Of a stretch of 32,166 nt of DNA, positions 2,461 to 23,240 are shown in pieces (position 1 is the stretch's first letter; the number at the start of each line of letters is the position of its first letter). This DNA comes from a virus. The position numbers and the translations under genes were made by a program. Where the stretch lies: positions 1-32,166 of IMG/VR virus record IMGVR_UViG_3300049914_000197; one strand, written 5' to 3'. Below the pieces are notes generated by a model that saw only the letters and a program-made list of their open reading frames with translations, had not been told where the DNA came from and ran no database searches.

Positions 2461-4380
2461 ATGATCTCATTCGAACAATTCGCCCGACAAAAAAAACTAT
2501 CACTACAACACGTTCGACGTATCGGCTTAGAAAACAATTACCGCTACATCGAGCACGCCGGTACACGATACGAGCTAACGCAAGAAGGCACTCATGCCAA
2601 TGGCACACCGCGCTATTTTATCATCGTGCAAGATGACGCTCGGAAGAAAAAGCATCTCAGCGATGAGCAACGTGAGATAGTGCTTAACGATCTGAACGCG
2701 ATGAATGCAAAGAATGAATCGGATGCAATTGCGAAGGTTGCCAAAAAGCATGGCGTGAGCTATTGGAGCGTGTATCGTTTGTGGAAAAATCCTGAACGTG
2801 TGCAGCGCAAGGCCCGCACTGATCGCGGCTCAACGAAGAAAATCGTTCCGACTGAATCGCTTGAAATCTTCCAGAGTATTTATTTACAAAATGCTCAGGG
2901 TCCGAATGCACGGCTCGCTTACAATCTTATGCGGCGTCAATTCGACGGCTGGGATCTGCCATTCCGGTATTTTAAACAACGCGGAAAAGAAATCGAACCT
3001 CTTAGATTACGGTATCATCAGGAAAGTAAGTTTGAACAAAAATACACGCCTCGCATGCGCCGCGATTTGTGGAGTGAGTTTGAATTTTTAGAACAAGTCT
3101 CTCTCGATGGCTGGACGGTCCCTGATCGTGTTTTGAAAAGCTGGGGATTCGATGATCTGACGAAAAAGAAATTCAAGTTCAACGGCAAAGATGTTTCGAT
3201 GGTCTGCGTGTTTGCATTCGATTCGAAAACCCGCTACCCGCTGGCATGGAGAGCATTTGAAAAATCAGTATCGCAGGATGACGTACTCGCGGTGCTGTTA
3301 GATGTGGTTTACCGTTGGGGCAGGCCGTCAACCTGGCTGTTGGACAACGGTACAGAATTCACAAATGACGCGGTTCAGAGATTTCTACGTGGGCTATATA
3401 CCACAGCCGATAACGAAGCAAAGAACCGCATCATTTTTTCAGAACCATATCAACCATACGGCAAGGGAGCGCACGAACGCCAGCATAGAATATTTAAAGA
3501 CGAATTCTGCGCGTTCTCTCGATCCTACTCACCAAGTCAATCGGAAAGCAGAAAGCCAACTCTGCAACTGAGCGCAGTAAAACCAACACACACGTTAGCG
3601 CAATGGGTAGAATCATTCGAAGTGTATTTGAATGGTTATTATAGAGAAGCGCAGCGCATCAGCTGGATGAATCCTGATTACAAACCACAGCATGAAGAAA
3701 ATGCAAACCGACCTCGCACACTCAATGAAGCACTCGACCGCGCTTATAAATCTTTCACTCCTGTAAAAATCGATCCGATGAAGCTGGCGTTCCTCTATGC
3801 CAAAAAATTCAAAACGAAAATCAAGCAAGGATCGTTCTCGACGCCAGCCGCGATAAGTGCAAAGAAAATTGTCTATCTGCCCGAAGGCGAAGGCATCTCA
3901 TGCGAGCGATATTCTGAAACATTTGAGGTGGTTGTGAATCCCGCCAATATGTGGCAGGCGTGGATATGCGATCTGAATAATAATCTTATCTGCGAAGCAT
4001 GGGACCCGCGCGGAAAGAATCGTGTCGATGCACCGACCCGCGAAAATGCCTCTGCGTACAAAAAGACACGCAACCTGCAAAAGAAACGCGCGAAGGAAGC
4101 TGCAGTGCTGAGCCTTGAGTTGGTAAAAATGGAAGATATGTATAAACGGAAATCAGCAGCAACGCGTGAACAGATTGCGGTGAACAACATCGAGAAATCA
4201 ATCTTTGCAGAACTGCCAGTGCAAAACGATCATTACGGTGCATCGATGGATGATGAAGACTTTATGAAGTCGGTGGATAATATTTACGACGAAATTTTCA
4301 ATCCAAAACAAACAACAGACGAGGAGAGCAACCATGAATCATGGCTTAGTGAAGACATCAACACAAAAAGAAACCCGTGA
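2461..4380 (+). CDS. DDE transposase (MuA-like)
   Basis: 639 aa from ATG 2461; a longer in-frame opening from TTG 2410 runs through the inverted repeat and is less likely. The N-terminal region (about 1-150) is basic with HTH-like segments, suited to end binding. The integrase-like catalytic core shows D216 (SLDGW), D295 (LLDNGTEFTN) and E339 (GKGAHERQ), the DDE triad with a glutamate in the usual position before an Arg/Gln. The C-terminal part (about 400-560) matches the beta-rich region after the core in Mu transposases, then a charged helical tail. It should join the inverted end motifs to target DNA for integration and replicative transposition. No MuB-like ATPase follows. Confidence 0.95.
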   Translation: MISFEQFARQKKLSLQHVRRIGLENNYRYIEHAGTRYELTQEGTHANGTPRYFIIVQDDARKKKHLSDEQREIVLNDLNAMNAKNESDAIAKVAKKHGVSYWSVYRLWKNPERVQRKARTDRGSTKKIVPTESLEIFQSIYLQNAQGPNARLAYNLMRRQFDGWDLPFRYFKQRGKEIEPLRLRYHQESKFEQKYTPRMRRDLWSEFEFLEQVSLDGWTVPDRVLKSWGFDDLTKKKFKFNGKDVSMVCVFAFDSKTRYPLAWRAFEKSVSQDDVLAVLLDVVYRWGRPSTWLLDNGTEFTNDAVQRFLRGLYTTADNEAKNRIIFSEPYQPYGKGAHERQHRIFKDEFCAFSRSYSPSQSESRKPTLQLSAVKPTHTLAQWVESFEVYLNGYYREAQRISWMNPDYKPQHEENANRPRTLNEALDRAYKSFTPVKIDPMKLAFLYAKKFKTKIKQGSFSTPAAISAKKIVYLPEGEGISCERYSETFEVVVNPANMWQAWICDLNNNLICEAWDPRGKNRVDAPTRENASAYKKTRNLQKKRAKEAAVLSLELVKMEDMYKRKSAATREQIAVNNIEKSIFAELPVQNDHYGASMDDEDFMKSVDNIYDEIFNPKQTTDEESNHESWLSEDINTKRNP

Positions 4381-4669
4381 TCAACTGCTTCAGGTGGACA
4401 AGTCAATGGCTGATACGATCACACGCATATTGGACATCGATGACCGGAATAAAGAGATCATGGCAAACTGGCGTGCAACGAAGGAATACAAAGAGCTGAA
4501 GGCGATGGCAAAAGAAAAGCGTGAATTGATCGTTGTTCAGCACGAAAAAAACGGCGCACGAAAGTTGCTCTTCGCTATGTTCAAAAAGTTCGGAATTCAG
4601 ACTCCCGAAACATCGCTGACAAAGCTTGCCAAGAAAAACGAAGATGCCCGTGCACTGATACCGGCATGA
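4334..4669 (+). CDS. Small charged helical early protein
   Basis: 111 aa, starting 47 bp inside the end of the transposase gene, with GAGGAG 8 nt before the ATG. The protein is almost wholly alpha-helical and Lys/Glu rich. It occupies the position where Mu carries the B target-capture ATPase, but it has no Walker motif and is far too small. Function unknown; a transposition accessory role is only positional inference. Confidence 0.7.
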   Translation: MNHGLVKTSTQKETRDQLLQVDKSMADTITRILDIDDRNKEIMANWRATKEYKELKAMAKEKRELIVVQHEKNGARKLLFAMFKKFGIQTPETSLTKLAKKNEDARALIPA

Positions 4670-8708: not shown

Positions 8709-8921
8709 ATGCAAACCCAAGCAGAAAAAATACTTGAACATTTACAATCCGGCCAGACTATCACGCCGTTGGAAGCTCTCCGGAAATATGGCTGCCTGCG
8801 CCTGGGTGCGCGCGTGTGGGATTTAAAACGAAAAGGTGCGGCTATCGATACGCGAATAATTAAAACTGAAACCGGCGCACACGTTGCCGAATATTCTTTG
8901 CAGCAGCAACAAGGCGCCTGA
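8709..8921 (+). CDS. Small helix-turn-helix protein
   Basis: 70 aa. The sequence AEKILEHLQSGQTITPLEAL, then KYGCLRLGARVWDLKRKGAAIDTR, matches the short winged-helix family common in phages (Helix-turn-helix domain, HTH_39-like). GGAG precedes the ATG. A probable DNA-binding regulator. Confidence 0.8.
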   Translation: MQTQAEKILEHLQSGQTITPLEALRKYGCLRLGARVWDLKRKGAAIDTRIIKTETGAHVAEYSLQQQQGA

Positions 8922-10329: not shown

Positions 10330-10632
10330 ATGGCGATCTGCAAAAGACAAACGAAGTGCGGCGAATGCGGCGGATATATTTTCAAAGGCGATACGTTCTG
10401 TCATACCTGTCAGAATGCGTATGTTCCAAATAAAAACAAAATCGTAAAGCCAGAACAAAGCACGCAGCCTCCGAAAGGTTTCCGACTTCTACGCATTGGT
10501 GAACTCGTAAAGAAGGCTGATCTCTACTACATCGGTGATAAAAGGTGGATACCAATCAACAGCGCTTGGATCGGAATGAAAGTCACAACGAAGTGCAGAC
10601 CAGGTGCACGAAAGCAGCGGAGTAAACAATGA
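10330..10632 (+). CDS. Zinc-ribbon protein
   Basis: 100 aa from ATG 10330, 9 nt after AGGAG; GTG 10324 is too close to it. CGECGG and CHTCQN form a zinc ribbon near residues 9-28, followed by a beta-rich domain (LRIGELVKKADLYYIGDKRWIPINSAWIG) that looks like a small phage fold. It overlaps the next start by ATGA. Confidence 0.7.
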   Translation: MAICKRQTKCGECGGYIFKGDTFCHTCQNAYVPNKNKIVKPEQSTQPPKGFRLLRIGELVKKADLYYIGDKRWIPINSAWIGMKVTTKCRPGARKQRSKQ

Positions 10633-11278: not shown

Positions 11279-11452
11279 ATAAAAGAATTAAGGCGTATAG
11301 AAAAAGACCTTGATAAAACATTGAACGACTTACATAGTATAAAATTAAAAGATGGCACATTCGGAATGATAATTGACTGGGAAGTGCGGATAGCGATTAC
11401 TACTTCCCACGAAGGGAAAGTATTCTCAACAAAATATAACAGCCTGCGCTAA
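11279..11452 (+). pseudogene. Open frame without a standard start (remnant or non-canonical start)
   Basis: 57 codons open from an ATA at 11279, directly after TGA, to TAA at 11450-11452. The translation looks protein-like (ELRRIEKDLDKTLNDL near the start, later DGTFGMIIDWEVRIAITTSH). An ATG at 11275 is out of frame. Either a decayed gene whose start was lost to a frameshift, or a rare ATA start with GGAG about 6 nt upstream. Its stop lies inside the first arm of the nested inverted repeats that follow. Confidence 0.35.
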
Positions 11453-11571
11453 GATTCAGCGGGAGATGACAGATTTATTTTCTATCTCCGTCTGAATCTT
11501 AGCGCGAGTTATCTGGCGCGAGTGAAACGAAGCGACAGAGATTTAACGAAGCGCCGAGCGCAGGCTGTTAT
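11436..11571. repeat. Nested inverted repeats (cassette-boundary-like structure)
   Basis: Outer arms ATAACAGCCTGCGCT (11436-11450) and its exact reverse complement (11557-11571). Inner arms GCTAAGATTCAG (11448-11459)/CTGAATCTTAGC (11492-11503), continued by GGAGAT/ATCTCC, with a further ATAAC/GTTAT match (11436-11440/11508-11512). GTTATCTGG occurs twice (11508, 11568), each followed by a CGAGTGA-containing tail. The arrangement recalls integron attC or other folded recombination sites, but the core boxes fit only partly and no integrase is present. Confidence 0.55.
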
Positions 11572-11953: not shown

Positions 11954-12268
11954 ATGACACACAAACAACTTCGCACACACGCGCGAAAATATTTTTCAAT
12001 CGATGTCAAAGCGCATTCGACCAGAGAGGTAGCACGTCGCACCGGAATATCGAATAGTGCACTGCAAAGATTCATGGGCGGCAAAGAAATCAAGATCACA
12101 GCAGAGCAGGAAAGAAAATTTATTCTCATCGTCGCGCGGTGGGAGCTTGACCCGATCTGTATCGCTGGCCGGGCTCGTGAGAGGATGCTGCGACAATATT
12201 TATCACAAGACGAAATCGCTGAATTCGGGCAATTAGTAGGTGGGACGCCTCATTCATTGGCTTCTTGA
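11954..12268 (+). CDS. HTH transcription regulator at the end of the early operon
   Basis: 104 aa with an HTH at about 24-50 (STREVARRTGISNSALQRFMGGKEIKITAEQERKF), similar to short phage Cro/CI-like folds. A GAGG lies upstream. It is the last regulator before the late genes, the position held by middle/late activators (Mor or C) in Mu, but it does not show the Mor-family sequence. It is the best candidate in the element for a protein acting at the 18.7 kb palindrome; that is inference. Confidence 0.7.
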   Translation: MTHKQLRTHARKYFSIDVKAHSTREVARRTGISNSALQRFMGGKEIKITAEQERKFILIVARWELDPICIAGRARERMLRQYLSQDEIAEFGQLVGGTPHSLAS

Positions 12269-12398: not shown

Positions 12399-12548
12399 AT
12401 GTTGACATGTGACAAATGCAAAAAACCTACTTGTGAAACTGTCGACGGAAAATGCTGGGATTGCAGAAACGAAGTCATGCCTTTTGAAATTAGGATCGCA
12501 TTCCTTGTGTTGGTGCTAATTCTATTATTAGCCATTCTTCGTGGGTAG
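12399..12548 (+). CDS. 49-aa zinc-knuckle plus TM protein
   Basis: A short gene with GGAG 6 nt before its ATG. It begins LTCDKCKKPTCETVDGKCWDC, with CxxC and a second CxxC-like pair forming a zinc knuckle, followed by a hydrophobic helix (about residues 31-46, IAFLVLVLILLLAIL) ending RG. It lies just after the early terminator and overlaps the 3' end of the leftward gene at 12528 by 21 bp. Similar tiny zinc/TM proteins occur in phages; role unknown. Confidence 0.6.
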   Translation: MLTCDKCKKPTCETVDGKCWDCRNEVMPFEIRIAFLVLVLILLLAILRG

Positions 12549-13121
12549 AACAAACTGAATTTTCTTTGCAATTTCCTCACCAAGCCAGCGTTCGAGCGGT
12601 GCTTGTTCCTTCGCCGTCAGTCCCATGAATATCCGCTTGATTTTATTCCTGCCAGCACCGCGATGATGGAAGCCCGCAATCTTTTCCGCTTCTTTGTTTG
12701 TAAAATAAATTTTCAAACTCGGTTCCGCTGCATTCACCTGCATGGCGAGTGCGCTCATCATCTGTCCGGTCCAATTAAGCGTTACGCGATCCGTTTCACG
12801 TTCTGCTAATTCGCGCATCCTTTTGTATCCGCCGTGAAGAGTGATCCACATCTTGCCGCTCTTGCTATTTCGATAAACCTTGTCAACAGTTCCGTCTTTG
12901 ATGGACTTCAGAAGTGATGCAGCTTTTCCATTTCCGATGCGTTCTTGCAATGCACCGTACGGCATGCCTGCCGCTTTCGTGCTGTATCCTTTTGATGTTG
13001 AGCCCGGGAGAAATTCTCCGCGAAGAGTACGTGCTTGAATGATGGCGAGAACTTTCTCACCGAGCTGCAGCAGCACTGCCTCGCCGAGTATGAGAGAGAG
13101 AATATTTTTATTGTCCGGCAT
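12528..13121 (-). CDS. Virion morphogenesis / tail-completion-like protein
   Basis: 197 aa. The C-terminal part (FHHRGAGRNKIKRIF, then MGLTAKEQAPLERWLGEE) resembles the end of the phage virion morphogenesis family to which Mu gpG belongs. The N-terminus has a helical LGEKVLAIIQARTL segment and STSKGYSTKAAG. It is the last gene of the leftward late block. Its ribosome-binding site, AGAGGGG, is supplied by palindromic repeat copy 2. Probably a neck or tail-joining protein. Confidence 0.6.
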   Translation of the reverse strand: MPDNKNILSLILGEAVLLQLGEKVLAIIQARTLRGEFLPGSTSKGYSTKAAGMPYGALQERIGNGKAASLLKSIKDGTVDKVYRNSKSGKMWITLHGGYKRMRELAERETDRVTLNWTGQMMSALAMQVNAAEPSLKIYFTNKEAEKIAGFHHRGAGRNKIKRIFMGLTAKEQAPLERWLGEEIAKKIQFVLPTKNG

Positions 13122-13122
13122 G

Positions 13123-13157
13123 AACCCCTCTTGCTCTCCCCTTTATAAAAGGGGAGA
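13123..13157. repeat. Palindromic intergenic repeat, copy 2
   Basis: AACCCCTCTT followed by CTCTCCCCTTTATAAAAGGGGAGA. Reading leftward, it encodes the last residues and stop codon of the portal gene and carries the ribosome-binding site of the 12528 gene. Confidence 0.8.
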
Positions 13158-14357
13158 AGTTGTTTCCGTAGTTTTTGCGCTCGTGACTTTGAAGCCGGTT
13201 TTTTCGGAAACCTCATCGTCATTCAAAGTATAACCTGCGGCTTTCAGGTCCGTAACAATGCGCGCGTTGGCTTCGCGGTCTTCTGATTCATCGGTGAGAA
13301 ATTTAAAACGCGGACGCAGCGTGAGATCGGTTTCGCTTTCGTTCAATTTATAGTCGACTGCGATGTGTTGCTCGTTTATGATTTCCTCAACGCGCTTCAA
13401 GCGCCACCACATTCTATCATCGGTAATAAGTTTCATCACCTGCAATGCAGCGCGGCTGCCGCCCTGTGTCGGGAGCTGCGTCGTGTTGGCTTCGCCGTTG
13501 ATCAGAATATCCAGCTCAGCATCGATTGCCTTTTGCAAATTCTCATACGCTGTAACATTTCCGCTGCGCGCGGCTTCCTGCAACTGAAATTTTATGTCTT
13601 CCGAAACAAGCGCCCATGCGTTCTTGCCGAAATCTTCTAGCGCTTCTTTTGCAACCGCCTTGTCTTCATTCGATGTGCCGGTTTTATATTCCGCTGTTCG
13701 AAATGGCTGGCCGAAGATCTCTACGAACTGCGACCAGTCCTGCCAGGAAAAATTCTTAATGATCGTAAGTGGAATAGCCGAGCGGAGAATGCCGCCGATG
13801 AATCCGGGCCGCGTGGACTTGAAGGGATTGAATTCTGAAATAATATATTGAACGCGCTCTGCAGGCGGTATCGGTATTGTCTTGAATGTCGTGTCGTTAT
13901 TCTCGATAAGCACAACTTCATATTTTCCGCTGTCATTTTTCTTGCGGAATAAATCCGTAGAAGGAACGACATCAAGATCTGTTTGCATTTTGCCGTTGAT
14001 GTTATTCCAGATTTGCCGCAGCGCGGTGATGCCGTAAAACTCTCCGTCCATGATCACATCGAAATTGTGATGCACACCGGAATTGATGAACCGTTCTTTT
14101 GTGGCTTCTGCGACTGCAACGGCGGATTTATTTTCGGGATCGCTCGGCACGATGTCCCAGGGAAAGCCGGTCACTGCATCATGCGCAGATCTCACAAGTC
14201 CGCCGACGCGGCTATTTGCTTCCATGAAGCGTGCCATAATTGCAAGCATCGGCCGCGGATCTGACTGATCAATCAGCTCGATCAATCTGAATGCTTTGTT
14301 ATATTCCTTAATAGTGACAAAAAGTTTTCGAGAAAGCGGTGCATATTGATAATTCAT
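13143..14357 (-). CDS. Portal protein, DUF935 (Mu gp29-like)
   Basis: 404 aa. The DUF935 core is recognisable: SDPRPMLAIMARFMEANSRV near the start, the GFPWDIVPSD segment at about 64-73, and IKNFSWQDWSQFVEIFGQPF followed by RTAEY at about 200-224. Later GKNAWALVSEDIKFQLQEAA and LITDDRMWWRLKRVEEIINEQ follow. Portal rings sit at the head vertex and pass DNA during packaging and injection. Shorter than Mu gp29 (about 510 aa). AGAAAGGTC precedes the ATG. The last four codons and stop fall in palindromic repeat copy 2. It follows the large terminase. Confidence 0.9.
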   Translation of the reverse strand: MNYQYAPLSRKLFVTIKEYNKAFRLIELIDQSDPRPMLAIMARFMEANSRVGGLVRSAHDAVTGFPWDIVPSDPENKSAVAVAEATKERFINSGVHHNFDVIMDGEFYGITALRQIWNNINGKMQTDLDVVPSTDLFRKKNDSGKYEVVLIENNDTTFKTIPIPPAERVQYIISEFNPFKSTRPGFIGGILRSAIPLTIIKNFSWQDWSQFVEIFGQPFRTAEYKTGTSNEDKAVAKEALEDFGKNAWALVSEDIKFQLQEAARSGNVTAYENLQKAIDAELDILINGEANTTQLPTQGGSRAALQVMKLITDDRMWWRLKRVEEIINEQHIAVDYKLNESETDLTLRPRFKFLTDESEDREANARIVTDLKAAGYTLNDDEVSEKTGFKVTSAKTTETTSPLL

Positions 14358-14382
14358 AAAAAAGACCTTTCTAAAAAATCAT

Positions 14383-14417
14383 AACCCCCTCTTAATCTCC
14401 CCCTTACCAAGGGGGAG
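14383..14417. repeat. Palindromic intergenic repeat, copy 3
   Basis: AACCCCCTCTTAA then TCTCCCCCTTACCAAGGGGGAGA, between terminase and portal genes. The core stem has five G:C pairs per arm, one more than the other copies, with compensating changes on both arms. Confidence 0.8.
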
Positions 14418-14438
14418 AAAGTTGTTGACAGTGGAAAA

Positions 14439-16013
14439 TTAATATAGATCGGATGAATGTCGACGGCCGCCGGTCTCAATTTCCTTGCCGCTAGATCCGC
14501 CGCGCATGGCTATCGGCCAGACTTGTTTGTATGCAGATGCGAGCGCGTCCGGAAAATCGACACGGTGTTGTGCGGTTTTTTTACCAATATAACCGATGAG
14601 CTGCGACTGCGCTTCGATACCGTCGCGCGTCTGCAAAAATGTTTCTATAAATAAAATATTGCCAAGCGAGTATGGCGTCTCAAGCTGCTCAATGCGAAAA
14701 TATTTATCGCCTTCAACGGCAATGTGCCGGATCGGAAGTTCCGGTTTGTTGCGTGTGGAAATATATATCTTCCTGAATTCCAGATACTGCGCCTGTGCGA
14801 AGTTGCTCTCCCATCCGATATACAACAAATGCGAACGGAAAAGATTGTAGGTGTCATACATTGCCAGAAAATATTCCTCCCATCCGCAGCGGCGAACGAA
14901 CGCAGCGGGAACGATAAACTTTTTCATCGTTGGAGAATAGAGCAGCACGACAAGCGTTTTAAAATCCGATGTCTCGCCGAATGCCGGATCGCAAAAGATA
15001 ATACCGATAGCATCTTTCGGGACCATTTTGAATGTTACCCAATGCTTCAATAAAAATCGCGCTCCCTCCGGAGGCGATGGCTTCTGCCGGTATTCCGCAT
15101 TCCACACGCTCATCGATAATTGCAAAGCGAGACGCATCTCATCTTCCGTTTTATACGCATAGCGCTGATACCACAGCGCGCGTGAATTCTTTTCATCCCA
15201 CGCATCGAAAATGGAAACGATAAAGGCGGGATGCTGCGCAGTGCGATCCGCGTGCGACATTTCCTCCAGGATGTTTATCAGGCACGTTGTGCGTGCATTA
15301 TTACCGAGATACACAGCGCAGCCCGATTCGGTGAGAGCCGGAAGATAATCACGCTCGATGACATCTAATTTCGCTTTACTTATTTCAGAATTGATGCTTG
15401 TGCTGAAATCTTCGTAGTCATCGAACTCTTCGAAATCCACACGCGTCTCGCCAAGCTCACCGCGCGGTGTTACCGTGTAGCTGTGCGCGATAAATGTCGT
15501 GCCTTCCGGATTATATTTATGAGGGACGATCCGGAACGAGTGCAGTGTGTCCCAGTTCTCATCAATGATTTTTCCGAAATCGGAAACGATCTTCGGATTG
15601 TATTTGATAATATCTCGCACGTAGCGAAAATCTTTTTCAACGAGATCCAGCGTGTCGCTGGCTTTGGAGTAATGATGTTTGATGCCGAAACAAGCGCACC
15701 ACACTTTGAACACGCGAAAGAACCGCGTTTTTCCGATACCGCGTTCGGCAGCGATGATATGTATTTTCCGGTTGTTGCTTAGCGCAGCGGCCAGCATCTT
15801 TATATGCACGATACAAAATGCAAACGTAAACCATTGCGGAAAATATTCCAAGCAAAAATAAAAGAAGCTCTTGCCGGCTTTCCTGATTCGCTTCTCGCGG
15901 TTCCGGTCCCAGTCGACAGGCAGCGACTTCATTCCTTTGCCGAATGCCGCTTCCTGGATAAGCTTGCGTTCCTGCTCGGCGAACTGCTGTTCTAAAATTG
16001 TAAACTCGTTCAT
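14439..16013 (-). CDS. Terminase large subunit (Mu gp28-like)
   Basis: 524 aa. ATPase domain: variant Walker A AAERGIGKT (88-96) and Walker B-like RVDFEEFDD (191-199). Nuclease domain: first Asp D342 in IIFCDPAFGE and a closing acidic pair D486/D489 in RVDFPDA, the RNase H-type metal site. It pumps DNA into the prohead and cuts it, which in Mu is headful packaging across the phage-host junction. The start overlaps the small-subunit gene by 4 bp (ATGA). A terminase-typical length. Confidence 0.92.
   Translation of the reverse strand: MNEFTILEQQFAEQERKLIQEAAFGKGMKSLPVDWDRNREKRIRKAGKSFFYFCLEYFPQWFTFAFCIVHIKMLAAALSNNRKIHIIAAERGIGKTRFFRVFKVWCACFGIKHHYSKASDTLDLVEKDFRYVRDIIKYNPKIVSDFGKIIDENWDTLHSFRIVPHKYNPEGTTFIAHSYTVTPRGELGETRVDFEEFDDYEDFSTSINSEISKAKLDVIERDYLPALTESGCAVYLGNNARTTCLINILEEMSHADRTAQHPAFIVSIFDAWDEKNSRALWYQRYAYKTEDEMRLALQLSMSVWNAEYRQKPSPPEGARFLLKHWVTFKMVPKDAIGIIFCDPAFGETSDFKTLVVLLYSPTMKKFIVPAAFVRRCGWEEYFLAMYDTYNLFRSHLLYIGWESNFAQAQYLEFRKIYISTRNKPELPIRHIAVEGDKYFRIEQLETPYSLGNILFIETFLQTRDGIEAQSQLIGYIGKKTAQHRVDFPDALASAYKQVWPIAMRGGSSGKEIETGGRRHSSDLY
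15112..15126 (+). repeat. Internal near-match to the transposase end motif
   Basis: ATCGATAATTGCAAA matches the terminal CGCGATAATTGCAAA at 13 contiguous positions, and the next G also matches L2. It lies inside the terminase gene, about 1 kb from the midpoint of the element (16.07 kb). Confidence 0.4.
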
Positions 16014-16534
16014 GAATTTTTATCTGCTTTGACTTCTGCTGCAACTTCTTTAAATACCTCGATGATGCGCAGTGCGCCTGCATCCGGTTCGTAACGCCGG
16101 ATAAGCCGCTCGACTATTTTCACATCAAGATTTTTTGCCATCTGTCCGAATTGCACCGAACGTAATTTTCTTAAAGAACCGGTAAGCTGATTTGTGTAGA
16201 GTAATAATTGCCCGACAGTAAGTCTTTTCTTTTGAGAGATTGCGCGTATGGATTCCTGGATCATCATTCCAAGCTGCGTCTCGGGTGATTCGCCTTCGAG
16301 TGCGAGTCTATCAAAATCTACATCAATGATCGGTGTTTTTTTAGTCGTGCCTTTATCGGAGCGTTCTTTCTTATCCGGGTCGCCTTTTCTCAGCACGCGA
16401 TAAACAGTGTACTCGGGATAGCCAAAATCATCTGCAATAGATTTGACAGATGCTTTCGTATCGCCGTAATATAAGTCGAGCCACTTCTTCTTTGTTTTTA
16501 TAGAGGGCTGCTTTTTATATTTTATGTCACTCAT
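16010..16534 (-). CDS. Terminase small subunit-like (gp27-like)
   Basis: 174 aa. N-terminal HTH (KWLDLYYGDTKASVKSIADD and then YPEYTVYRVLRKG), followed by a helical body that ends in a repeated leucine pattern (ALRIIEVFKEVAAEVKA). Small, HTH-bearing and directly upstream of the large subunit, overlapping it by ATGA: the usual placement. It would bind the packaging start near the left end of the element. Sequence family not confirmed beyond this. Confidence 0.75.
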   Translation of the reverse strand: MSDIKYKKQPSIKTKKKWLDLYYGDTKASVKSIADDFGYPEYTVYRVLRKGDPDKKERSDKGTTKKTPIIDVDFDRLALEGESPETQLGMMIQESIRAISQKKRLTVGQLLLYTNQLTGSLRKLRSVQFGQMAKNLDVKIVERLIRRYEPDAGALRIIEVFKEVAAEVKADKNS

Positions 16535-16989
16535 AATGTGACCTCTGCTTTTAATTGCACACCGACAACGGCGCCGGTGCTGGAACGTTCTACGATTTCG
16601 AGAGGCGGTTCGTTATCCGGTTGTGTGATGACCGTGCCTTCAATTTCTGCGTTGGTGAGATGCGCTAAAACTTTAGCACCGATAACGAGAGCTGCATCCA
16701 CAGCCTCCGCCTCTGTTCCGGTTGGCGCTGCGATGCAATAAATAAAAACATCGAGCGGGATGCGCACGTTGCCCTTTTGTGAAACCAGTGTTGGCGTTCC
16801 CGGCACAAGCCACACGGCAGCCGATGGCGGCATGAGTGTCGTTACCTTGCCGGTGAAAGCGCGCTCGGCTCCGGGCACTCCCTCATCTTCCGGATCGTCT
16901 TCTGCTCCGGGTGTACCGATGCCGAGATCATCTTTGTTGTCGTTGAGATCGTCAACGATTCCTTGCCACAATGTTGATATGCCATTCAT
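16531..16989 (-). CDS. gp37-like (DUF1834-type) neck/tail-terminator protein
   Basis: 152 aa. Acidic loop (DDPEDEGVPGAE) followed by a beta-rich domain (VWLVPGTPTLVSQKGNVRIPLD... VDAALVIGAKVLAHL) and a C-terminal strand VVGVQLKAEVTL, consistent with tail terminator or gp37-like folds. It follows the gp36-like gene with overlapping TAATG. Assigned by size, fold pattern and order; not certain. Confidence 0.55.
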   Translation of the reverse strand: MNGISTLWQGIVDDLNDNKDDLGIGTPGAEDDPEDEGVPGAERAFTGKVTTLMPPSAAVWLVPGTPTLVSQKGNVRIPLDVFIYCIAAPTGTEAEAVDAALVIGAKVLAHLTNAEIEGTVITQPDNEPPLEIVERSSTGAVVGVQLKAEVTL

Positions 16990-17600
16990 TACCAGTTCTC
17001 CGTTCTGCGACAGTCGGCATCGAATTCCGATCCGGTTGCTTCTTCCGTGCTCGGCTCAAGATCAATGTCACCGTTAGCGATTGCATCCAATTCTATCAGC
17101 GCATCCTTGTATAATTTTTCACGCCGGTCGAGCTCCGGTTTGTTGGTATCGTTCCACTGCTGCTGACCGCTCAGGTTCCAAATAATAATACGACCTGCGA
17201 TGCTCTCAAGTATCTCGTAGTTATCACCGTCTTCTGCTGGCTCTTCACTGATGCTGGAAGTGATCTTGGAATCCGCATACGCAAACGGCGTATCCTGTTC
17301 TTCAGCTGGAATTTTAGAAAAGAGTGCCGTGACCTGATCGGCGTTGAGAAATGCTTTTAACTTTTCTTTGGAAGTAAAGTGCGCTACGATTTCTTCAAGA
17401 GATATTTCATCTACAGTACCATCTGTGGATGGAAGCGATGCGGATGCGGCAAGCACAATGCTTGTTGCAGCTATCGATTCGATCACTCCGATATATTGTG
17501 CGGCGCCGACAGTAAAAGAAATAGCATTACCGATATCGGAGGTTTGAATTTGCCCGGCTGTTAAACCGCTGATCGTTCTTGTTAGATAAGTGTAAGTCAA
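16989..17600 (-). CDS. gp36-like (DUF1320-type) head-tail connector protein
   Basis: 203 aa from a TTG start with AAGGAG 7-8 nt upstream. The C-terminal half (TPFAYADSKITSSISE; YEILESIAGRIIIWNLSG; ELDRREKLYKDALIELDAIA) fits the head-tail connector DUF1320 pattern of Mu gp36: a helical bundle with a repeated EKLY-D-LxxI helix. The N-terminal half is beta-rich and unusual for the family, suggesting a fused domain. Located before gp37-like and terminase genes. Confidence 0.65.
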   Translation of the reverse strand: MTYTYLTRTISGLTAGQIQTSDIGNAISFTVGAAQYIGVIESIAATSIVLAASASLPSTDGTVDEISLEEIVAHFTSKEKLKAFLNADQVTALFSKIPAEEQDTPFAYADSKITSSISEEPAEDGDNYEILESIAGRIIIWNLSGQQQWNDTNKPELDRREKLYKDALIELDAIANGDIDLEPSTEEATGSEFDADCRRTENW

Positions 17601-17645: not shown

Positions 17646-18617
17646 TTATCCTATTGGACTTCCGTCTACCCAAATTGTTGTTTCGGCATCCCAATTCCCA
17701 ATACCTACCAAGGCTTTGAACTCTGATTTTGTGTCTGCGTTGGTTGGCATAACCGCATTGGTAAGGTCGGCACCTGCGAAATTACAATTTCGTATAGCCG
17801 CGCCGGTAAATATGACCTCCTCAAGTGTCGCGCCCATAAAGGAGGTAACTCCGCCATTCGCGAAAACAGCATTAGTAAAATCAGCCCCGGACATATTCGC
17901 ATTTGTAAAAATGATAGCGTCCAAAAAAGCACCAACGAATAAAGAACCTTGAAGCCGGCAACCAATAAAAAGATTGTCTTGAATTGTTGAACCCGAAAAA
18001 TCAGCGGCAAGCAAACTGGTATCAGTAAAATCTATTACGGTAAGCGTGCTATTATCAAATTTGATGTTGTCAAGAAATAAATTGGATAAATCAACGCGAT
18101 TATAGACGCCAGAATTATTTGTCCCTTGAATAATAGCGCCAGACAATACAATAGGAGTGGTAAGGTGATGTAAGAGATTGATTATAAATTTAATATCCGT
18201 AAAACTCTTCCATGCAAGACCATCATTCATGGTGTTTTTTGTTAGAGCTTGAAATTCTAATCCACCAGGCGGAAGAGCGGTTAAAGTGCCCAATTTTATT
18301 TCCAATGCGTCTGTGAAATCATTTGTCGAAAGTTCCTTGCCGGTAATCTTATCAACTTTGAGATCGAGAGAGGTTTGTGTATTGCTGGGACAGTTGTCTA
18401 CTTTTCCCTTTGCAGTTGTATCAAAATCGTTTGCGGAGAGTCCCTTGCCCGTTTCCTTATCAACTTTGAGATCGAGAGAATCCTTTACTAATTTTTCCGA
18501 TCCGAAGTGCGAATTGTCCGGCGTAGTCTGCCATGTAGAGATTTTATTTGCGCTCACCTCGGCTGCACGCGCAATCGCAGCTACTAAAGTTTGTAAAGTT
18601 GTTTTTATGATAGACAT
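17646..18617 (-). CDS. Pentapeptide-repeat fibre-like protein
   Basis: 323 aa, AAAGGA ribosome-binding site. The N-terminal part contains two copies of a tail-fibre-type segment, LDLKVDK.TGK.LS.NDF (about 47-66 and 83-102), which share a 20+ bp DNA identity. From about 172 to 300 it is a pentapeptide-repeat stretch (VDLSNLFLDNIKFDN; MSGADFTNAVFANGG; NCNFAGADLTNAV), which folds into a right-handed quadrilateral beta-helix. It ends with WDAETTIWVDG. First gene of the leftward late block. It may be a virion fibre, or the pentapeptide part may mimic DNA; the former is better supported by the N-terminal repeats. Confidence 0.75.
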   Translation of the reverse strand: MSIIKTTLQTLVAAIARAAEVSANKISTWQTTPDNSHFGSEKLVKDSLDLKVDKETGKGLSANDFDTTAKGKVDNCPSNTQTSLDLKVDKITGKELSTNDFTDALEIKLGTLTALPPGGLEFQALTKNTMNDGLAWKSFTDIKFIINLLHHLTTPIVLSGAIIQGTNNSGVYNRVDLSNLFLDNIKFDNSTLTVIDFTDTSLLAADFSGSTIQDNLFIGCRLQGSLFVGAFLDAIIFTNANMSGADFTNAVFANGGVTSFMGATLEEVIFTGAAIRNCNFAGADLTNAVMPTNADTKSEFKALVGIGNWDAETTIWVDGSPIG

Positions 18618-18644
18618 ATCAAGTATCCTTTTATAAGTAATTGT

Positions 18645-18661
18645 ATTGCGCTTCGCGCAAT
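18645..18661. other. Hairpin in the late intergenic region
   Basis: ATTGCGC/GCGCAAT with a 3-nt TTC loop (18645-18661), followed by AACAG...CTGTT (18662-18685). It lies in the presumed 5' leader of the leftward block. Confidence 0.4.
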
Positions 18662-18717
18662 AACAGTCTCAGGCCTCCGGCTGTTCGATTCCAATATGGA
18701 AAAATATTTTTTTCTGA

Positions 18718-18743
18718 GATGGCTACAGGTACCTGTAGCCATC
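18718..18743. promoter_or_regulatory. 26-bp perfect palindrome between divergent late operons
   Basis: The arm GATGGCTACAGGT is followed directly by its exact reverse complement. It lies midway between the leftward fibre/packaging block (starts 18617) and the rightward scaffold/capsid block (starts 18803). A candidate promoter on the + strand, TTGGGA (18751-18756) and TAGAAT (18774-18779) with 17 nt spacing, would put the palindrome centre near -55, a usual place for an activator. Confidence 0.65.
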
Positions 18744-18802
18744 ACGGGTTTTGGGAAGAATTTATATTGCATATAGAATTTAGAACGGGAAGCGGAAAAA
18801 AG

Positions 18803-19396
18803 ATGAAAGAAAAAATTTTAAAGCTAAAACTTTTGATCGCGAAACTCCAGAACGACGCTCCTATGAAAGCGGAGCTCGAAGCTGAGATCGCAGAACTTGA
18901 AGCTGCAACGGCAGCGAATATTGTGCCAACTCCAACAACTAAAGATTCCGTCCAATTAGCACCGCAGCATCAGCCGTTAGTATTGCCGGCTGAAGTGACC
19001 GCAGCTCTCGGCGAAATGAAAACGCTCAAAGAGATGTTGTTGAAACAAGAAGAGCGTGCGACTGCTGCCGAGACGGCGATGGCGGAACGTATGAAATCGG
19101 AGAAGGCGCAAAAGAAAGTCGACTATCTCAAGAAGGTAACTGAAACAGAAAAGAAGGTAACGCCTGCGGAATGGAAAGAAAAGTATGAAGCTCTGTATGA
19201 TGCAGTTCCTGAAGCGGCCATGAAAGTGATCGATGCTCTACAAGTGCATCCGGCGTCTAGACAGACAAAAACGATAGATGGAAAGACGGAAGATGGTAGA
19301 GGAGAGAAAACCACTTCGCTCAAAAATTATGTCGATCACAAGGAAAGTTTTGACGCTCAAGCGATTGCTGCGTTTACAGCACCGAGCAATAATTGA
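18803..19396 (+). CDS. Capsid scaffold-like protein
   Basis: 197 aa from ATG 18803; the longer open frame from 18641 runs through the palindrome and hairpins and lacks a good start. Strongly helical and charged: KEKILKLKLLIAKLQNDAPM, coiled-coil ELEAEIAELEAA, a Pro-rich break at about 50-70, then a second coiled coil (MKTLKEMLLKQEERATAAET) and TPAEWKEKYEALYDAVPEA. It immediately precedes the major capsid gene, as scaffold or protease-scaffold genes do. No S49 or HK97 protease domain is visible, so it is the scaffold part only. Confidence 0.7.
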   Translation: MKEKILKLKLLIAKLQNDAPMKAELEAEIAELEAATAANIVPTPTTKDSVQLAPQHQPLVLPAEVTAALGEMKTLKEMLLKQEERATAAETAMAERMKSEKAQKKVDYLKKVTETEKKVTPAEWKEKYEALYDAVPEAAMKVIDALQVHPASRQTKTIDGKTEDGRGEKTTSLKNYVDHKESFDAQAIAAFTAPSNN

Positions 19397-19436: not shown

Positions 19437-20402
19437 ATGAAATTATTCGAATTTAGCGGCGCAGACGGACAGCAAGGCAACAATTCAGATCCGGCATTAC
19501 GCGCAATTGTAGCGAACGAGATGCGGCTTGAAACGCCGATCTTCGAGTTTGCGGAGTTTTACCAAATGGGCGGCTCTGCCGATACGCCGCTCAAAGCATC
19601 GACGCAGACAGGCGGCAACGAACGAGCTATTAACTCTGACTTCGGCGGAAATGCAACGGCGCCTTCTCTCGATGCCATCGCGCTGAAAATTATCGGCGAT
19701 AAGATCATGACCGATAAAGCGTACGAGCGCCGGTTCGGTCCCAATGGCGCCGGGATTGAAAGCGAACGCCTGCGTCAGTTGAAAGCGTTCTCTCGATCTT
19801 TCGCCCGGCATTTTGTAAACTTGTTGATCAACGGCGCCATCAGTGCGACGCAGTTCAACGGTCTGAAAGCGTTGTGCACCAGTACAAAATTGGTGAGCAT
19901 CCAAGATGGTGCGGACGGCGATGTCGTTGTGTTAGGTAACAGCGACAATGCAAAGCGCTCGCAACAAAAGTTTTTAAAAGCGCTCGATCTGTTAATCGAC
20001 ACCGTGAATCCATCCTGCCTGTTGATGAATTCCGACGCGAAAAGTTACATCGAAGCAATCGCGAGAGACTTCGTATCGCTCACGACCATCGATAACGTTA
20101 CATCGCTTGTACTGACGCGTTACAAAGGCGTGCCGGTTATCAATGCGCGGCGCGCAAAGGATAACGCGACGCAGGTCATCACCAGCGCCGAGACCAAGGG
20201 CGAATCCGATGACTGCACATCGATCTACGCTGTGAAGTTTGGCGAGAAGATCGATACCACGCTGGCGACGAACGTCGGCTTAGCCGTCGACAATTATGGC
20301 CTCGTCGGATCACAATATGTGACCAACGTCGAGATGGATATCGACATGGCGATCTTGAGCGCCTATGCAGCTCAACGAATGGAAGGTATCCGGCTGCTCT
20401 AA
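19437..20402 (+). CDS. Major capsid protein (HK97-type fold)
   Basis: 321 aa with GGAG/AAGG before the ATG. The course is that of HK97-fold capsids of the Mu-like/encapsulin-related type: an N-terminal arm, helix AIVANEMRLETPIFEFAEF, the spine-helix region QLKAFSRSFARHFVNLLING, and a C-terminal VGLAVDNYGLVGSQYV, then VEMDIDMAILSAYAAQRMEG. High charge balance and no TM segments. Follows the scaffold by 40 bp. Forms the shell of the head. Confidence 0.85.
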   Translation: MKLFEFSGADGQQGNNSDPALRAIVANEMRLETPIFEFAEFYQMGGSADTPLKASTQTGGNERAINSDFGGNATAPSLDAIALKIIGDKIMTDKAYERRFGPNGAGIESERLRQLKAFSRSFARHFVNLLINGAISATQFNGLKALCTSTKLVSIQDGADGDVVVLGNSDNAKRSQQKFLKALDLLIDTVNPSCLLMNSDAKSYIEAIARDFVSLTTIDNVTSLVLTRYKGVPVINARRAKDNATQVITSAETKGESDDCTSIYAVKFGEKIDTTLATNVGLAVDNYGLVGSQYVTNVEMDIDMAILSAYAAQRMEGIRLL

Positions 20403-22260: not shown

Positions 22261-22719
22261 ATGGGTGCTTTTAAATCGATATTAGGTTCTGTAAAAATAG
22301 TACAGAATGTTATCTCGGCAAACCTGACGCTTGCCGCAACATGGGCTGCAGCGACAGACCTCGGTGATCTGAAAGGCAAACCGTATGTGAAGGTGACGTG
22401 GGATCAACAGAATGTGCCGTCTCAAGGCGGGCCGATAGCGCTTGAACTCGCGGCAAAATTTGAAACGTCGACACTGGATATCACCACACCAGCAACGCTG
22501 ACGGCTCTGAAAGGCATGCGCGGCAAAAATGTTTCTCTTCTTTGCATGCCGGTCGGAACACTGAGCGCAGATAATCCGATTGTGATCGTGAAGAACTTCC
22601 CGCTCCTCCTGAGCGGTGAACTCAACATCGGCGATATTTCGTCGATAAAAATGGCTGGTGAAAAACCGGCATACGATGAGTCAGATATTTACTTATTGCG
22701 TGCGACTGCGTTGACATAG
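22261..22719 (+). CDS. Tail tube-like protein, paralogue 1
   Basis: 152 aa with AAGGGA upstream. Beta-rich, with GDLKGKPYVKVTWDQ, IALELAAKFETSTLDITT and GELNIGDISSIKMAGEKPAYD. By eye about 60 percent identical to the next gene. Its place between lysis and tail-chaperone/tape-measure genes, its size and fold pattern fit a major tail (tube) subunit. No sheath gene precedes it, so a flexible non-contractile tail is expected. Confidence 0.65.
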   Translation: MGAFKSILGSVKIVQNVISANLTLAATWAAATDLGDLKGKPYVKVTWDQQNVPSQGGPIALELAAKFETSTLDITTPATLTALKGMRGKNVSLLCMPVGTLSADNPIVIVKNFPLLLSGELNIGDISSIKMAGEKPAYDESDIYLLRATALT

Positions 22720-22766: not shown

Positions 22767-23240
22767 ATGGGTGTCTTAAAATCAATATTGGGTTCCGTAA
22801 AAGTTTTGCAGCACGATGTCATCGATGCAGTCGACCTGACGCTCCTTGCATCTTGGGCTGACGCAACAGATCTCGGCGACTTGAAAGGCAAACCGTTTGT
22901 GAAAGTTACGTGGGATCAAAACAGCGTCGATACACAACGCGGTAAAATAGCGCTTGAAATCACTGCGAAGTTCGAAACATCGACGCTGGATGTAACTACA
23001 GCAGGCACTCTTACGGACCTGCAAGCAATGCGCGGATTGAACGTCTCGCTCCTGTGCACGCCGGTCGGAACGGTCGGCGCTGAAAATCCGATTATCATCC
23101 TGCCGAATTACAAGCTGCAGATGAGCGGTGAAATAAACGTCGGTGATATCTCATCGATCAAATTGCACAGCGAGAAACCTGCGTATGATGAGGCCGAGGT
23201 GTACACACTGCTCGACGAAGATCTTGACCCGGGCACCTGA
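22767..23240 (+). CDS. Tail tube-like protein, paralogue 2
   Basis: 157 aa, a tandem copy of the preceding gene; shared blocks include KSILGSVK, DLGDLKGKP, VKVTWDQ, KFETSTLD, VSLLC.PVGT and GDISSIK..EKPAYDE. An AAAGGAG precedes the ATG, in a stretch of short GGTAAAmotif repeats. The 2 proteins may form a mixed tube, or one may be the tube and the other a tip or terminator form. The duplication is clear; the division of roles is unknown. Confidence 0.65.
   Translation: MGVLKSILGSVKVLQHDVIDAVDLTLLASWADATDLGDLKGKPFVKVTWDQNSVDTQRGKIALEITAKFETSTLDVTTAGTLTDLQAMRGLNVSLLCTPVGTVGAENPIIILPNYKLQMSGEINVGDISSIKLHSEKPAYDEAEVYTLLDEDLDPGT

What the first reader, a model, noticed from the sequence alone, without database searches (positions are those of the whole stretch)
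18618..18802. 26-bp perfect palindrome controlling divergent late operons
A perfect palindrome (arm GATGGCTACAGGT) lies between the leftward packaging/fibre block and the rightward capsid/tail block, near -55 of a plausible rightward promoter. Perfect 26-bp symmetry is improbable by chance. One late activator could turn on both operons from one site, unlike the several separate C-dependent promoters in Mu.
Basis: partly seen in the sequence, partly recalled or inferred. Interest (0 to 1): 0.65.

Follow-up and report, generated by a model that had tools for sequence, protein, structure and literature searches.

The report
Shared palindrome between divergent phage promoters
Between the DNA-packaging genes and the capsid/tail genes of this Mu-like phage lies a perfect 26-bp palindrome with a promoter-like box at exactly the same distance on each side, so one bound regulator probably switches on both sets of virion genes; this is a new variant of a known kind of phage late-gene switch.

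Summary
The perfect palindrome GATGGCTACAGGT|ACCTGTAGCCATC is real (18718-18743); about 0.0005 such sites are expected in the window by chance. It is the only copy and lies between divergent genes: fibre, terminase, portal leftward; scaffold-like gene and capsid rightward.

The only relative found, a 34-kb IMG/VR contig, keeps both boxes at that spacing (TATATT, TATGTT). Its palindrome has decayed to 9 of 13 pairs, but all four half-sites keep CATC(A/T)C(A/G)G.

Best explanation: one regulator dimer, probably a late activator, binds a dyad centred near -44.5 of both late promoters and replaces both -35 elements, as Mu Mor does at -43.5 (PMC4390567). No Mor or Ogr homologue was found. One shared site for divergent packaging and capsid operons was already proposed for P2-like phage Smp131 (PMC3931495). 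The regulator is unidentified, conservation rests on one relative, and nothing has been tested experimentally.

The parts
18718..18743 (.). Perfect 26-bp palindrome, core of the proposed shared operator
   Evidence: equivalent imperfect dyad (9 of 13 pairs) in the relative
18714..18747 (.). Extended dyad (34 bp); half-site AC(C/T)(T/A)(G/A)T(A/G)G(C/A)CATC(A/T)C(A/G)G, shared by all four half-sites of the two phages
18763..18768 (+). Predicted rightward -10 box TATATT, start expected near 18775
   Evidence: Same offset (33 nt from the centre) as the leftward box; identical in the relative. Use as a promoter is inferred
18693..18698 (-). Predicted leftward -10 box CATATT, start expected near 18686
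   Evidence: TATGTT at the same offset in the relative. Use as a promoter is inferred
17646..18617 (-). First leftward gene: pentapeptide-repeat, fibre-like protein; absent from the relative
12528..17600 (-). Leftward packaging block: Gp36-like, small-terminase-like, terminase large subunit, Mu-type portal and neighbours
18803..19396 (+). First rightward gene, unnamed, scaffold-like by position
   Evidence: no family match
19437..20402 (+). Major capsid protein, start of the rightward virion block
   Evidence: phrog_212; 93% identical in the relative
11954..12268 (+). HTH protein, one candidate for the regulator
   Evidence: Weak HTH_31 match; homologue at the same place in the relative, 30-33% identity; not shown to bind

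Best explanation
18690-18775 is a symmetric, back-to-back pair of late promoters sharing one operator. A symmetric DNA-binding protein, most likely a phage-encoded late or middle activator made from the early region, binds the dyad at 18714-18747. The dyad centre lies about 44.5 bp upstream of both predicted starts and covers the place where each -35 element would be. From there the protein recruits RNA polymerase to TATATT (rightward: scaffold-like gene, capsid, tail) and CATATT (leftward: fibre, terminase, portal), so packaging and virion genes switch on together. Shown: the palindrome, -10-like boxes at equal distance, conservation of both in one relative, uniqueness of the site in this record. 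Inferred: that the boxes are used, that the protein activates, that both whole blocks depend on it. Unknown: which protein.
For: Palindrome far beyond chance. Six-base run ATATTG at the same offset on both sides, P about 0.01. The relative keeps -10-like boxes on both sides at the same offset, and all four half-sites share CATC(A/T)C(A/G)G. Left arm, both 4-bp flanks and the right TATATTG are 12/13, 4/4, 4/4 and 7/7 identical against 61% at four-fold sites of the capsid gene. The strict half-site plus -10 motif occurs only at this site in the window. No -35-like hexamer at the expected place: CATCAC and CATCTC. Mu Mor binds a dyad centred at -43.5 in a promoter that lacks a -35 element (PMC4390567). 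The next best dyad scores in both phages are far lower, so the binder seems dedicated to this site.
Against: The right arm is only 8 of 13 identical in the relative, and its dyad alone is not beyond shuffles of its own gap (P 0.375). Only one relative is known. No known activator family (Mor, Ogr/Delta) is present. The best positional candidate, the 11954 HTH, is only 30-33% identical between phages whose site is partly kept. The same kind of phages in Porphyromonas and Elizabethkingia show no significant dyad in the equivalent gap. The promoter consensus of the unknown host is not known, so the -10 assignment is provisional.
Confidence: 0.58

Rival explanations
1. Same bidirectional promoter pair and operator, but the bound dimer is a repressor: it covers both -35 regions and keeps the late genes off in the lysogen or early phase, and late expression follows its removal.
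For: A long perfect dyad overlapping both promoters is as good a repressor site as an activator site; the phage has a CI-like repressor and a small HTH protein.
Against: Neither side has a -35-like hexamer at the expected place, so the promoters look dependent on help. No similar dyad or half-site lies near the repressor gene (772-1158) or elsewhere in the window beyond chance.
Confidence: 0.17
2. Two back-to-back promoters read by a special sigma factor or a modified polymerase; CATC(A/T)C(A/G)G is its upstream element and the palindrome arises because the two elements abut head to head.
For: The half-site plus -10 motif behaves like a complete promoter on each side, with 15-nt spacing.
Against: The symmetry runs through to the centre (13 of 13 pairs here), further than two -35 elements need. 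No sigma-like family among the 30 ORFs scanned with Pfam; rightward genes beyond 20402 were not scanned with Pfam.
Confidence: 0.09
3. RNA-level element: the palindrome acts as a hairpin (terminator, attenuator or stabiliser) in a transcript crossing the gap.
For: As RNA it folds into an 11-bp stem, -18 kcal/mol.
Against: The hairpin falls to -4.3 kcal/mol in the relative; no T-run terminator; no Rfam match. If the predicted starts are right, neither main transcript contains it.
Confidence: 0.05
4. A DNA-transaction site near the middle of the genome, such as the strong gyrase site of Mu (from memory: central in Mu), rather than a transcription operator.
For: The site lies at 58% of this contig and 47% of the relative's.
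Against: It does not explain -10-like boxes at equal distance on both sides; gyrase sites are not defined by palindromes (general knowledge).
Confidence: 0.04
5. The conserved stretch is the start of a small reading frame (ATG 18719), not an operator.
For: The frame is open from 18719 into the 18803 gene (MATGTCSHHG...), and the relative starts MAIGTNGHHG.
Against: No third-position bias: 3, 3, 4 changes by codon position against 25, 9, 109 in the capsid gene. The relative's frame meets a stop before its gene (sequence). No well-placed ribosome-binding site.
Confidence: 0.03

Closest known systems
P2-like phage Smp131 promoters PP'/PO' (Ogr-type late activation; PMC3931495)
   Same: One site, nt 4381-4398, read in both directions, proposed for divergent packaging (PQ) and capsid (ONMLKRS) operons.
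   Different: Site is TGT-N12-ACA with an Ogr-like protein; here the sequence is unrelated and no Ogr/Delta is found. Smp131 has further late promoters; here no second site of this kind was found in the window.
Phage Mu middle promoter Pm with Mor (PMC4390567)
   Same: Dyad centred at -43.5, replacing a missing -35 element.
   Different: One-sided promoter with 5-bp repeats in a 16-bp element; here a 26-34-bp dyad with a -10-like box on both sides. No Mor-family protein.
Phage Mu late promoters Plys, PI, PP, Pmom with C (PMC4461284)
   Same: Late genes with non-consensus -35 regions, activator site upstream of or overlapping -35.
   Different: Four separate promoters; C belongs to the Mor family (from memory), which is not found here.
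Transposable phages of Porphyromonas and Elizabethkingia (L125, L127, L129)
   Same: Same divergent layout: terminase and portal one way, protease, capsid and tail the other, with a gap of 95-97 bp in two of them.
   Different: No significant dyad in their gap; terminase only 24% identical. Late promoters not described in the two papers read.

Membership tests
Mor/C-activated Mu promoter | Dyad site centred near -43.5 and no -35 hexamer | tested here: inconclusive
   Centre at about -44.5 from both predicted starts, -35 positions read CATCAC/CATCTC, but starts are predicted, not mapped
Mor/C-activated Mu promoter | A Mor-family (PF08765) activator encoded by the phage | tested here: not met
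   No match in this record or the relative; both contigs may be incomplete
Mor/C-activated Mu promoter | Transcription depends on the bound activator | not testable with these tools
   Needs RNA start mapping, footprinting and reporter tests
P2 Ogr/Delta late promoter | TGT-N12-ACA activator site | tested here: not met
   The dyad reads GATGGCTACAGGTACCTGTAGCCATC, with no TGT-N12-ACA in it (direct reading)
P2 Ogr/Delta late promoter | Ogr/Delta zinc-finger protein (PF04606) | tested here: not met
   No match in this record or the relative
Shared bidirectional late promoter (as proposed for Smp131) | One symmetric site between divergent packaging and capsid operons | tested here: met
Shared bidirectional late promoter (as proposed for Smp131) | Both operons transcribed from it and dependent on the same protein | not testable with these tools
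   No expression data for this phage

The most novel reading that the evidence does not exclude
A new, non-Mor, non-Ogr late activator family in a little-known lineage of transposable phages drives all packaging and virion genes from a single symmetric operator placed at -44.5 of two mirror-image promoters, so that one binding event decides between both directions.
Probability: 0.3. Interest if true: 0.6.

Novelty: new variant of a known kind. Interest (0 to 1): 0.42.

Why it matters
It would show a transposable phage controlling its packaging and virion genes from one symmetric site instead of the several C-dependent promoters of Mu, with nearly the geometry of Mor at Pm (dyad near -44, no -35) but without a recognisable Mor or Ogr. 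Because the site is one short fragment with a predicted start on each side, it can be tested in a simple two-reporter construct and used as bait to find the regulator.

Tried and rejected
Exact 20-bp core: 0 in genome contigs, 2 unrelated GC-rich contigs in viral contigs. The relaxed dyad pattern gave one more contig, inside a coding region with no related proteins, so chance. The half-site plus -10 pattern found only the known relative. Capsid and terminase profile scans found no second relative, and the capsid scan of cellular genomes none, so the host is unknown. Transposase and the 11954 protein have no match in annotated phages. Terminator, RNA hairpin and coding explanations were tested and set aside. 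Porphyromonas and Elizabethkingia gaps show no dyad above shuffles. The model of the 11954 protein is too poor (pLDDT 55) for a fold search. Hankyphage and Porphyromonas phage papers say nothing on late promoters in the passages found.

Full report
OBSERVATION. The palindrome GATGGCTACAGGT|ACCTGTAGCCATC is at 18718-18743, inside the 185-bp gap between the leftward gene 17646-18617 and the rightward ATG at 18803. A gapless perfect arm of 13 is expected 0.0005 times in a window of this size and composition, and no other gapless perfect arm reaches 9. It is unique in the 32166-bp record, which is a virus contig.

SETTING. Leftward: a pentapeptide-repeat fibre-like protein, a Gp36-like protein, a small-terminase-like HTH protein, terminase large subunit (phrog_38) and a Mu-type portal (Portal_Mu, 1.1e-54). 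Rightward: a gene in the scaffold position without a family match, the major capsid protein (phrog_212) and, by reading, an endolysin-like gene (21245) and tail genes. Early genes include a CI-like repressor, a small HTH protein, a CII-like protein, a transposase and DUF3164. The divergent packaging/capsid layout also occurs in transposable phages of Porphyromonas and Elizabethkingia, so the layout itself is not new.

RELATIVE. Only one relative was found: IMGVR_UViG_3300046505_000145, handle G001, with capsid 93% and terminase 89% amino-acid identity and a largely collinear gene order. Its gap carries GATGGCTATAGGT|ACTAATGGACATC at the same place. Dyad symmetry there is 9 of 13 pairs, so perfect symmetry is not kept. 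The left arm (12/13), the flanks CTGA and ACGG (4/4 each) and the right TATATTG (7/7) are kept, the right arm less so (8/13), against 61% identity at four-fold sites of the capsid gene. The relative's dyad alone would not stand out from shuffles of its own gap.

MIRROR-IMAGE PROMOTERS. When the two sides are read outward from the centre, both have ATATTG at exactly the same offset: TATATT at 18763-18768 (+) and CATATT at 18693-18698 (-), each starting 33 nt from the centre. A matched run of 6 or more at equal offset has P about 0.01 with shuffled or random flanks. This offset was noticed by eye before it was tested, so the figure is a guide. The relative has TATATT (right) and TATGTT (left) at the same offset. 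The four half-sites share AC(C/T)(T/A)(G/A)T(A/G)G(C/A)CATC(A/T)C(A/G)G.

UNIQUENESS AND ITS LIMITS. The strict half-site plus -10 motif, CATCWCRG-N14-17-YATRTT, occurs at both halves of this site and nowhere else in the window (2 matches, 0.02 expected in shuffles). In G001 a looser form, CATCNCNG-N16-ATNTT, was searched. It matched both halves of the equivalent site and one further place, 2569-2597 (-), CATCTCGGCATACCCGGGGAGTATATTTT. That extra match does not fit the strict form (its last six bases would read TATTTT), and its neighbourhood was not examined. The motif was built from the sites it is tested on, so these counts speak to uniqueness and spacing, not to the existence of the motif. 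A dyad matrix has the same circularity; it gives 45.9 here against 8.3 for the next place in the window, and 41.0 against 10.6 in G001.

GEOMETRY. If the boxes are -10 elements, the dyad centre is near -44.5 for both promoters and the dyad covers both -35 positions, which read CATCAC and CATCTC. In Mu Pm a Mor dimer binds a 16-bp dyad centred at -43.5, replacing the -35 element (PMC4390567). That is the closest mechanism. Neither Mor nor Ogr/Delta is found in either phage, so this may work like those systems without being a member.

ALTERNATIVES TESTED. RNA hairpin: stable here (-18 kcal/mol) but -4.3 in the relative; no terminator-like tail; no Rfam match. Coding leader from ATG 18719: changes fall 3, 3, 4 on codon positions against 25, 9, 109 in the capsid gene. 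A repressor bound at the same dyad, and a sigma-specific back-to-back promoter, are not excluded. No sigma-like family was seen among the 30 ORFs scanned with Pfam, but rightward genes beyond 20402 were not scanned with Pfam.

CANDIDATE REGULATORS. The HTH at 11954-12268 has a homologue at the same genome position in the relative (30-33% identity) and sits at the end of the early region, roughly where Mu keeps mor and C. Its model is poor (pLDDT 55). Others: HTH_39 protein 8709-8921 (82% identity), CII-like 1538-1999 (81%), HTH 1227-1508 (67%). None can be chosen from sequence.

PRECEDENT AND NOVELTY. For P2-like phage Smp131 a single TGT-N12-ACA site read in both directions (nt 4381-4398) was proposed for the divergent packaging and capsid operons (PMC3931495). 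The idea of one shared late site is therefore not new. New here are the sequence, the -44.5 geometry on both sides, its occurrence in a phage with a Mu-type portal and a transposase, and the lack of a known activator. Nothing was tested at the bench, and conservation rests on a single relative.

Noticed in passing
17646-18690: The fibre-like pentapeptide gene and its leader are absent from the relative, where the Gp36-like gene follows the promoter directly; a fibre cassette seems to have been inserted or lost right behind the leftward promoter.
   Followed up: partly
18646-18662: Small hairpin ATTGCGC-TTC-GCGCAAT in the leader of the leftward gene, not present in the relative.
   Followed up: no
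11446-11505: Imperfect inverted repeat, 22-nt arms 91% complementary, 16 nt apart, in a poorly coding stretch before the 11954 HTH gene; the longest in the window.
   Followed up: no
G001:C1:2569-2597 (-), locus L132: A third, looser half-site plus -10 match in the relative, away from the dyad; it does not fit the strict motif and is probably chance.
   Followed up: no
L002 5062-5081 and L003 1363-1382: The same 20-bp core palindrome GGCTACAGGTACCTGTAGCC lies in two GC-rich, mutually related contigs next to further GGCTACAGGTG-type repeats, apparently by coincidence.
   Followed up: partly
22261-22719 and 22767-23240: Two adjacent paralogous genes in the tail region, also paired in the relative (63-68% identity across the pair, 88-89% to the counterpart).
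   Followed up: no
G001 reverse strand, about 10330-10580: Long run of GGCTCCGGCTACGGCGAC-type repeats (Gly-Ser-Gly-Tyr-like) just before the relative's HTH homologue.
   Followed up: no
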